Of a stretch of 35,721 bases of DNA, positions 28,247 to 32,777 are shown in pieces (within the stretch, counting starts at the first letter, position 1; every line of letters starts with the position of its first letter). The DNA lies in NCBI GenBank assembly GCA_021838945.1, contig JAKCCH010000024.1:1-35721 (forward strand). Reading direction: 5' to 3'. Source of the stretch: Actinomycetes bacterium (GTDB lineage: Bacteria > Actinomycetota > Acidimicrobiia > Acidimicrobiales > Bog-793). The translations under genes and the position numbers were made by a program. Under the pieces are notes generated by a model. It made no database searches and had not been told where the DNA came from. It saw only the letters and a list, made by a program, of their open reading frames with translations.

Positions 28247-28450
28247 TCAGCCCGCTTCGGTGAACTGGCTCGACAGGTAGCTGTTCACGTCCTCTTCCCG
28301 GAGCCGGTAGGACTTACCAACCCTCACGGCAGGTAGCTGGCCCGAGTTGATGAGTCGGTACACGGTCATGCTGGAGACGCGAAGCAGCTGCGCCACCTCC
28401 GCGACTGTGTAGAACTTCGCCTTCGAGTAATCGATTGTCGTCAGATCCAT
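28247..28450 (-). CDS. Excisionase-type helix-turn-helix DNA-binding protein
   Basis: 67 aa FYTVAEVAQLLRVSSMTVYRLINSGQLPAVRVGKSYRLREEDVNSYL; start MDLTTIDY at 28450 preceded by GAGAGGGGTG. Confidence 0.88.
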   Translation of the reverse strand: MDLTTIDYSKAKFYTVAEVAQLLRVSSMTVYRLINSGQLPAVRVGKSYRLREEDVNSYLSSQFTEAG

Positions 28451-28621
28451 CACCCCTCTCCGCCTGGATGCCATGGTACGCCAATGTTGCTGGAGTGAAA
28501 AGTGGTTCTTGCGTGGCGGGTGTGACAACGGGATCCGAGCCCCGGACAGGTGCGAGGCGAACCCCTCCCGAGGGGATGCGTCAACGACCGGGCAAAGCGC
28601 GCGCAAAGGGCGCGGAAGCGC

Positions 28622-31233: not shown

Positions 31234-31827
31234 TCAGGTGAGGAGGCTGTCGGGATCGGCCGCGCCGGACTTGTAGCGGTCCACGATGGTGGCCTGTATG
31301 GCGTCGATGCGCTCGTGCAGGACCCTCCGCTTGCTCGAGAGCGTCGTCTCCTCGTCACGGAGGCGCTCGAGCACCGCGCCGAGCTCGCTGTCGCCGAGCG
31401 TGCAGAGGTTGGCCCCCGGCAGCAGCTCGCCGGGTGCAACGTGCCCCTCGTCGTGGGAGAGCACCTGTGCGAGCAGCACCTCGAGCGGCACGTCGTGCTG
31501 CAGGTCCATCATCTCGGCGACCGCCGGCATCGTGTGGACGGAGCTGTGCGCCGGCTCTGTCAGGCTGGCCGTGGCGGAGGAGAGGATCGTCGGGAGCTCG
31601 TCCACGAGGCGGCCGATGTCGCTGCGACCACCGTCACGGCGGATCTCGATCTCGGCGAGCACGAGGTCGATCTCGCCCTGAAGGACGCGCCGGAGGTAGG
31701 ACAACACGACTTCGGCGCGCTGGCAGTCGTCCCGCCGGGCGCGGAGCTCCGCCACCGGTGCCGCCTCGAGGCCGTCAAGGTAGGACGGAGCGCACAGCTC
31801 GCTCAGGTGATGTGCTGTGAGACTCAT
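31234..31827 (-). CDS. RsiG-like protein (putative c-di-GMP-responsive anti-sigma factor)
   Basis: 197 aa. Motif 1 E39-VVL-S-YL-R-RVL-Q-GEI-D54 matches E(X)3S(X)2R(X)3Q(X)3D exactly. Motif 2 E160-TTL-S-SK-R-RVL-H-ERI-D175 matches with Q to H. Confidence 0.75.
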   Translation of the reverse strand: MSLTAHHLSELCAPSYLDGLEAAPVAELRARRDDCQRAEVVLSYLRRVLQGEIDLVLAEIEIRRDGGRSDIGRLVDELPTILSSATASLTEPAHSSVHTMPAVAEMMDLQHDVPLEVLLAQVLSHDEGHVAPGELLPGANLCTLGDSELGAVLERLRDEETTLSSKRRVLHERIDAIQATIVDRYKSGAADPDSLLT

Positions 31828-31854: not shown

Positions 31855-32259
31855 TTACCTGCGACTGCGCCCATCGTACCTGCCCCGGCGGGTGATCGAC
31901 CCCGCCCGTGCGGACGGGTGGTAGCGGTACACCGCGCGCCCGAGGACGGCGCGCCGATCCACCGGGCCGAACTCGCGCGAGTCGCGACTCGGGCCCTCGT
32001 TGTCCCCCCGGACCTCGATCGACGTGGCATGAAGACGCGAGACGCGCTTCACGAGGACCCGGTCCGGCAGCTCCGGGTCGCGGAACACCACGAGGTCGCC
32101 GAGCTCGAGCACGGGCCAGCGCACGGCGACGAGGCGATCTCCCGGCGCGAGCTCGGGGACCATCGAGACACCCGAAACGGTCACGCGCGTGACAGGACGG
32201 GCGCGCCTCCACCACGCGACGGCGGCAGCCAGGACGGCGGCGGCGGAGACAATTCGCAC
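31855..32259 (-). CDS. sodX: S26-family signal peptidase, nickel-SOD maturation protease-like
   Basis: VSGVSMVPELAPGDRLVAVRWP...LGDLVVFRDPELPDRVLVKRVSRL...VRGDNEGPSRDSREFGPVDRRAVLGRAVYRYHP; probable GTG start at 32259; divergent from sodN. Confidence 0.85.
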   Translation of the reverse strand: MRIVSAAAVLAAAVAWWRRARPVTRVTVSGVSMVPELAPGDRLVAVRWPVLELGDLVVFRDPELPDRVLVKRVSRLHATSIEVRGDNEGPSRDSREFGPVDRRAVLGRAVYRYHPSARAGSITRRGRYDGRSRR

Positions 32260-32357
32260 TCCGGTCGACCCCCGCGGGCGGGGCAGAATCCGCGCACCCC
32301 CCCGATAGGGTGACTCCCGAATCGACCGAACCCCATCCTGACGAAGGAGACACGCCA

Positions 32358-32777
32358 ATGTCGTTCACCTCCAGAGTGCTCTCGAGCCTCGACCGCTGGA
32401 GCGAGCCGCTGACGGCCCATGCCCACTGCGACCTGCCGTGCGGCGTGTACGACCCGGCGCAGGCCCGTATCGAAGCAGAGTCGGTGAAGGCCTGCATGGA
32501 GAAGTTCAACGGGTCGGACGACCCGGTGTTCCGCGAGCGGGCCGTGTTCATCAAGGAGGAGCGGGCGGACCTCGTGAAGCACCACCTCTGGATCCTCTGG
32601 ACCGACTACTTCAAGCCCGAGCACGTCGAGAAGTACCCGGAGCTGCACGACCTGTTCTGGAAGGCGACGAAGGCGGCCGGCGACTCGAAGAAGACGAACG
32701 ACGTCGGCGTGGCCGAGCGGATGCTCGCCAACATCGGCGAGATCGACCGCATCTTCTGGGAGACCAAGAAGGCCTGA
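32358..32777 (+). CDS. sodN: Nickel superoxide dismutase precursor
   Basis: Ni-hook HCDLPCGVYDPAQARIEAESVK after a 22-residue leader; RBS-like AAGGAGA upstream of the ATG at 32358. Confidence 0.96.
   Translation: MSFTSRVLSSLDRWSEPLTAHAHCDLPCGVYDPAQARIEAESVKACMEKFNGSDDPVFRERAVFIKEERADLVKHHLWILWTDYFKPEHVEKYPELHDLFWKATKAAGDSKKTNDVGVAERMLANIGEIDRIFWETKKA

What the first reader, a model, noticed from the sequence alone, without database searches (positions are those of the whole stretch)
31234..31827. RsiG-like c-di-GMP-dependent anti-sigma factor with one canonical and one variant ligand motif
Residues 39-54 (31666-31713) read EVVLSYLRRVLQGEID, an exact E(X)3S(X)2R(X)3Q(X)3D signature. Residues 160-175 (31303-31350) read ETTLSSKRRVLHERID, the same spacing with Q replaced by H. 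Streptomyces RsiG binds c-di-GMP through two such motifs on an antiparallel helix pair and holds sigma WhiG; a simpler form is known from Rubrobacter. Two motifs, one with a Q-to-H change, could represent a diverged state with altered ligand stoichiometry or affinity. No sigma factor is encoded in this window, so the partner must lie elsewhere.
Basis: partly seen in the sequence, partly recalled or inferred. Interest (0 to 1): 0.8.

Follow-up and report, generated by a model that had tools for sequence, protein, structure and literature searches.

The report
RsiG anti-sigma factor in Acidimicrobiales
The gene encodes an ordinary twin-motif RsiG, a protein that uses the signal molecule c-di-GMP to hold the sigma factor WhiG; its odd histidine is the normal residue in this bacterial order, not a sign of a diverged or changed switch.

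Summary
In detail: the 197-aa ORF at 31234-31827 (-) carries both motifs as stated. It is a genuine RsiG: Pfam RsiG 95 bits (cut-off 27), and an AlphaFold model (pTM 0.77) whose only significant PDB matches are the four chains of Streptomyces RsiG from RsiG-WhiG-c-di-GMP crystals. The partner lies elsewhere in the genome: a WhiG sigma factor 54% identical to S. venezuelae WhiG, with all three c-di-GMP-contacting residues. The genome also has ten GGDEF and four EAL domains. Across 98 related genomes RsiG and high-scoring WhiG co-occur (Fisher p about 6e-17). The "variant" motif is no peculiarity: all 47 Acidimicrobiales RsiGs examined have H (42) or F (5) there. Published work already reports H in place of Q at this stacking position (in motif 1), and an H-type RsiG that binds c-di-GMP. 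The proposed change of stoichiometry or affinity is therefore unsupported, though not measured. Mildly new: the stacking residue of motif 2 varies widely (Q, H, F, L, M, I) over the phylum. The regulon is unknown; a search for WhiG-type promoters gave only background. Verdict: new member of a known kind, low interest.

The parts
31234..31827 (-). rsiG: twin-motif c-di-GMP-dependent anti-sigma factor, 197 aa
   Evidence: PF22802 RsiG 95 bits vs cut-off 27; phmmer hit to 6pfj_T 4.2e-10; AlphaFold/Foldseek match to 6pfv and 6pfj
31666..31713 (-). c-di-GMP motif 1 (residues 39-54) EVVLSYLRRVLQGEID, on helix 25-64
31303..31350 (-). c-di-GMP motif 2 (residues 160-175) ETTLSSKRRVLHERID, on helix 146-187; stacking residue H171
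   Evidence: H or F in all 47 Acidimicrobiales examined
31351..31665 (-). stretch between the motifs (residues 55-159): rest of helix 1, inter-helix loop, start of helix 2. [quoted passage not shown] here it is longer than in the rest of the order and has LLPGANL near residues 135-141
   Evidence: alignment; low pLDDT only at 87-101; role of the loop from PMC8325347
30718..31206 (-). XRE/Cro-type HTH regulator directly downstream of rsiG on the same strand; a conserved neighbour in the family, no role in the switch shown
   Evidence: PF01381 46.8 bits; neighbour conservation
31855..32358 (-). S26 signal peptidase upstream of rsiG on the same strand, divergent from a nickel superoxide dismutase; a neighbour, probably not a part of the switch

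Best explanation
This is a monomeric twin-motif RsiG. The two long helices (residues 25-64 and 146-187) pair antiparallel, so that the E, S, R, Q/H and D residues of both motifs form one groove that binds an intercalated dimer of c-di-GMP. Loaded RsiG then clamps sigma2 and sigma4 of WhiG and keeps it off RNA polymerase; when c-di-GMP falls, WhiG is released. H171 does the guanine-stacking job that Q does in Streptomyces motif 2. Shown by sequence or model: family membership, helix-pair fold, conserved motif residues, a WhiG with its ligand contacts in the genome, c-di-GMP enzymes in the genome, co-occurrence of RsiG and WhiG. Inferred from the solved relatives: ligand binding, sigma binding, stacking by H171 and the direction of regulation.
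For: PF22802 95 bits vs 27. Sequence match to the RsiG chain of the solved complex. AlphaFold pTM 0.77; Foldseek E 3e-5 to 3e-4 for the four RsiG_Sv chains and nothing else below E 0.6. Invariant columns are nearly exactly the ligand residues. WhiG in the same genome: 262 bits against TIGR02479, best solved relative WhiG_Sv 6pfj_A at 2e-81, K57/G61/R62 conserved, placed between an XerC/D-like gene and rpsB-tsf-pyrH. Ten GGDEF domains, eight with an intact GGDEF or GGEEF signature, and four EAL domains. RsiG and WhiG: both 48, RsiG only 8, WhiG only 2, neither 40 of 98 genomes, p = 6e-17. Published mechanism PMC8325347.
Against: No binding data. Cognate promoters were not recognised: the flagellar/WhiG consensus with up to 2 mismatches gives 10 matches against 9 for the reversed control in this genome, with no clear excess in relatives. 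Two RsiG-positive genomes at 93% completeness lack a high-scoring WhiG. The co-occurrence is not corrected for phylogeny.
Confidence: 0.93

Rival explanations
1. A diverged RsiG in which motif 2 is weakened by Q to H, giving one strong and one weak half-site with altered stoichiometry or affinity for c-di-GMP.
For: H171 is not the Streptomyces residue, and the published logos of 130 twin-motif RsiGs show the second motif well conserved.
Against: H or F is universal at this position in 47 Acidimicrobiales RsiGs while the other motif residues stay fixed, apart from one D to A. H can stack on guanine like Q, and RsiG of Conexibacter woesei, with H, binds c-di-GMP at 25 uM, tightened to 1.7 uM with WhiG. 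The ligand is one c-di-GMP dimer held across both motifs.
Confidence: 0.04
2. The protein has kept the fold but lost the switch: a c-di-GMP-independent anti-sigma factor or a scaffold with another partner.
For: Two RsiG-positive genomes at 93% completeness lack high-scoring WhiG; no WhiG-type promoters recognised.
Against: Ligand residues of both RsiG and WhiG are conserved in this genome. In the one relative with K57R and G61S in WhiG (G065), RsiG is reduced to a weak hit, so the two seem to decay together.
Confidence: 0.03

Closest known systems
Streptomyces venezuelae RsiG (PDB 6PFJ, 6PFV)
   Same: Twin motif, antiparallel helix pair, WhiG partner with K57/G61/R62; whiG next to rpsB-tsf-pyrH here, which from my own knowledge (not checked here) is also its setting in Streptomyces
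   Different: H instead of Q in motif 2; longer inter-helix region; 27-30% identity in the Foldseek alignments; what it controls in this order is unknown
Rubrobacter radiotolerans and Conexibacter woesei single-motif RsiG (PDB 7LQ2-7LQ4 for Rubrobacter)
   Same: Same motif and helix; C. woesei RsiG has H at the same motif position and binds c-di-GMP (PMC8325347)
   Different: Those are small homodimers with one motif per chain; this one carries both motifs in one chain

Membership tests
RsiG (twin-motif) | Match to the RsiG profile above the curated cut-off | tested here: met
   PF22802.1 95 bits vs 27, two stretches
RsiG (twin-motif) | Two E(X)3S(X)2R(X)3[Q/H](X)3D motifs, one on each helix | tested here: met
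   the published motif admits Q or H
RsiG (twin-motif) | Antiparallel helix-pair fold of RsiG | tested here: met
   AlphaFold model pTM 0.77 with helices 25-64 and 146-187; only RsiG_Sv chains match with E below 0.001, TM-score 0.66-0.69 by target length.
RsiG (twin-motif) | WhiG sigma factor with c-di-GMP contact residues K57, G61, R62 in the same genome | tested here: met
   G000:C143:24106-24774, all three present
RsiG (twin-motif) | Binds c-di-GMP | not testable with these tools
   needs protein
RsiG (twin-motif) | c-di-GMP-dependent binding and inhibition of WhiG | not testable with these tools
RsiG-WhiG pathway (not a defining feature of RsiG itself) | WhiG-type promoters (TAAA-N15-GCCGATAA) above background | tested here: inconclusive
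   10 matches vs 9 in the reversed control at 2 mismatches; only one spacing tested genome-wide, assembly 81% complete

The most novel reading that the evidence does not exclude
In Acidimicrobiales the switch uses a lineage-specific asymmetric pocket (Q in motif 1, aromatic H or F in motif 2, plus, in this family, a longer loop between the helices) that sets a different c-di-GMP threshold and controls a regulon other than sporulation or type IV pili, read from promoters unlike the flagellar consensus.
Probability: 0.12. Interest if true: 0.4.

Novelty: new member of a known kind. Interest (0 to 1): 0.2.

Why it matters
It adds an uncultured branch of Acidimicrobiales to a switch that turns out to be widespread (RsiG-profile matches in 200 of 297 sampled genomes of the phylum), and it refines a detail: the stacking residue of motif 2 is not generally Q outside Streptomyces-like taxa. 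It does not open a new mechanism.

Tried and rejected
Altered stoichiometry through Q to H: rejected as the default because the residue is lineage-wide and Q and H are published as equivalent. Lack of a partner: rejected, WhiG is in the genome. WhiG regulon by promoter pattern, in the own genome and in 98 relatives: no signal over the reversed control. Type IV pili as the target, as in Rubrobacter: a pil cluster exists at G000:C32, but the only consensus-like sites there lie inside reading frames, so no support. Flagella: no flagellin N-terminal domain in the assembly. NCBIfam has no useful hit for the protein. The scan of named genomes reached only 18 loci, all with H in motif 2.

Full report
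Observation. The ORF on the minus strand at 31234-31827 encodes 197 residues with the two motifs exactly where stated. Shuffling the protein 200,000 times never produced two such motifs, and no other frame of the window carries one. The two helices aligned on their motifs are 15/40 identical, in line with the intragenic duplication proposed for twin-motif RsiGs (PMC8325347).

Identity. Pfam assigns RsiG (PF22802) at 95 bits against a cut-off of 27, in two stretches. A sequence search of solved structures finds S. venezuelae RsiG (6pfj_T, listed as AmfC protein) at 4e-10, then Rubrobacter RsiG at about 0.001. An AlphaFold model from 40 homologues has mean pLDDT 82 and pTM 0.77, with long helices 25-64 and 146-187 carrying one motif each. 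Against the PDB it matches the four S. venezuelae RsiG chains (E 3e-5 to 3e-4) and nothing else below E 0.6.

Partner and signal. The genome, of 3.04 Mb and 81% completeness, belongs by its named relatives to the Acidimicrobiales. It has one FliA/WhiG-family sigma factor above the curated cut-off, at G000:C143:24106-24774. Its best solved relative is S. venezuelae WhiG (2e-81). The three WhiG residues that touch c-di-GMP, K57, G61 and R62, are all present. The gene lies after an XerC/D-like recombinase and before rpsB-tsf-pyrH, an arrangement kept in the relatives inspected. In the high-scoring WhiGs of RsiG-positive relatives K57 and R62 are always kept, while G61 is sometimes S, A or T; the best FliA-like proteins of eight genomes without RsiG all lack the triad. 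The genome has ten GGDEF domains, eight with an intact GGDEF or GGEEF signature, and four EAL domains. Over 98 related genomes, 48 have both RsiG and a WhiG above 240 bits, 40 have neither, 8 have RsiG only (six of these below 90% completeness) and 2 have WhiG only (Fisher p = 6e-17). This is not corrected for phylogeny.

The variant residue. In 29 relatives from the family and order, and in 18 loci from the collection of named genomes (all MAGs labelled Acidimicrobiales, Acidimicrobiia or actinobacteria), the residues at the stacking positions of motifs 1 and 2 are Q/H in 40, Q/F in 5 and H/H in 2; none has Q in motif 2. The two sets may share some species. Across 40 aligned sequences the invariant columns are E39, S43, R46, R47, D54, E160, S164, R167, R184 and Y185. 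Elsewhere in the phylum, 31 twin-motif sequences gave Q/Q 14, H/L 6, H/H 4, Q/F 3 and single cases of H/M, Q/H, Q/L and Q/I; that set was picked by a motif pattern and from the best-scoring matches plus a hand-picked spread of families, so the counts are illustrative. The published set of 130 described H as frequent in motif 1 and the rest as strikingly conserved. With wider sampling the motif 2 stacking residue is the more variable one. The same paper argues that H can make the same stacking contact, and shows that C. woesei RsiG, with H, binds c-di-GMP (25 uM alone, 1.7 uM with WhiG). So H171 is the long-fixed state of this order and most likely a working stacking residue, not a sign of decay.

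What it controls. Not established. The flagellar/WhiG consensus gives 10 matches at up to two mismatches against 9 for the reversed control in this genome, and no clear excess in relatives. A type IV pilus cluster is present, but its only consensus-like sites fall inside reading frames. No flagellin domain was found.

Surroundings. rsiG is flanked on the same strand by an S26 signal peptidase upstream and an XRE-type regulator downstream, followed by a GT4 glycosyltransferase, ProC and a short excisionase-like HTH protein. This order is kept in the two other family members inspected and is partly broken in more distant relatives. No evidence ties these neighbours to the switch.

Verdict. A correct observation of an ordinary member of a well-studied family, in a poorly studied order, with one small addition to what is known about variation at the motif 2 stacking position.

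Noticed in passing
G159:C1 around 2743813 (L181) and G205: The phylum survey shows five and six RsiG-profile matches in single genomes; more than two suggests several RsiG copies, whereas the 2021 paper found only one genome with a second copy.
   Followed up: no
G065:C1:631198-631869 (L093): WhiG with K57R and G61S in a 99% complete genome whose only RsiG hit is weak (E 7e-5, one match); looks like a switch in decay.
   Followed up: partly
window 31855-32777: Nickel superoxide dismutase (+) divergent from an S26 signal peptidase (-), resembling the known sodN/sodX pairing.
   Followed up: no
window 28247-28606: Short excisionase-type HTH protein resembling BldC next to proC; conserved in relatives.
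   Followed up: no
alignment A1, residues about 85-141 of P0001: This family has a longer inter-helix loop than the rest of the order, with a conserved LLPGANL-like stretch just before helix 2.
   Followed up: no
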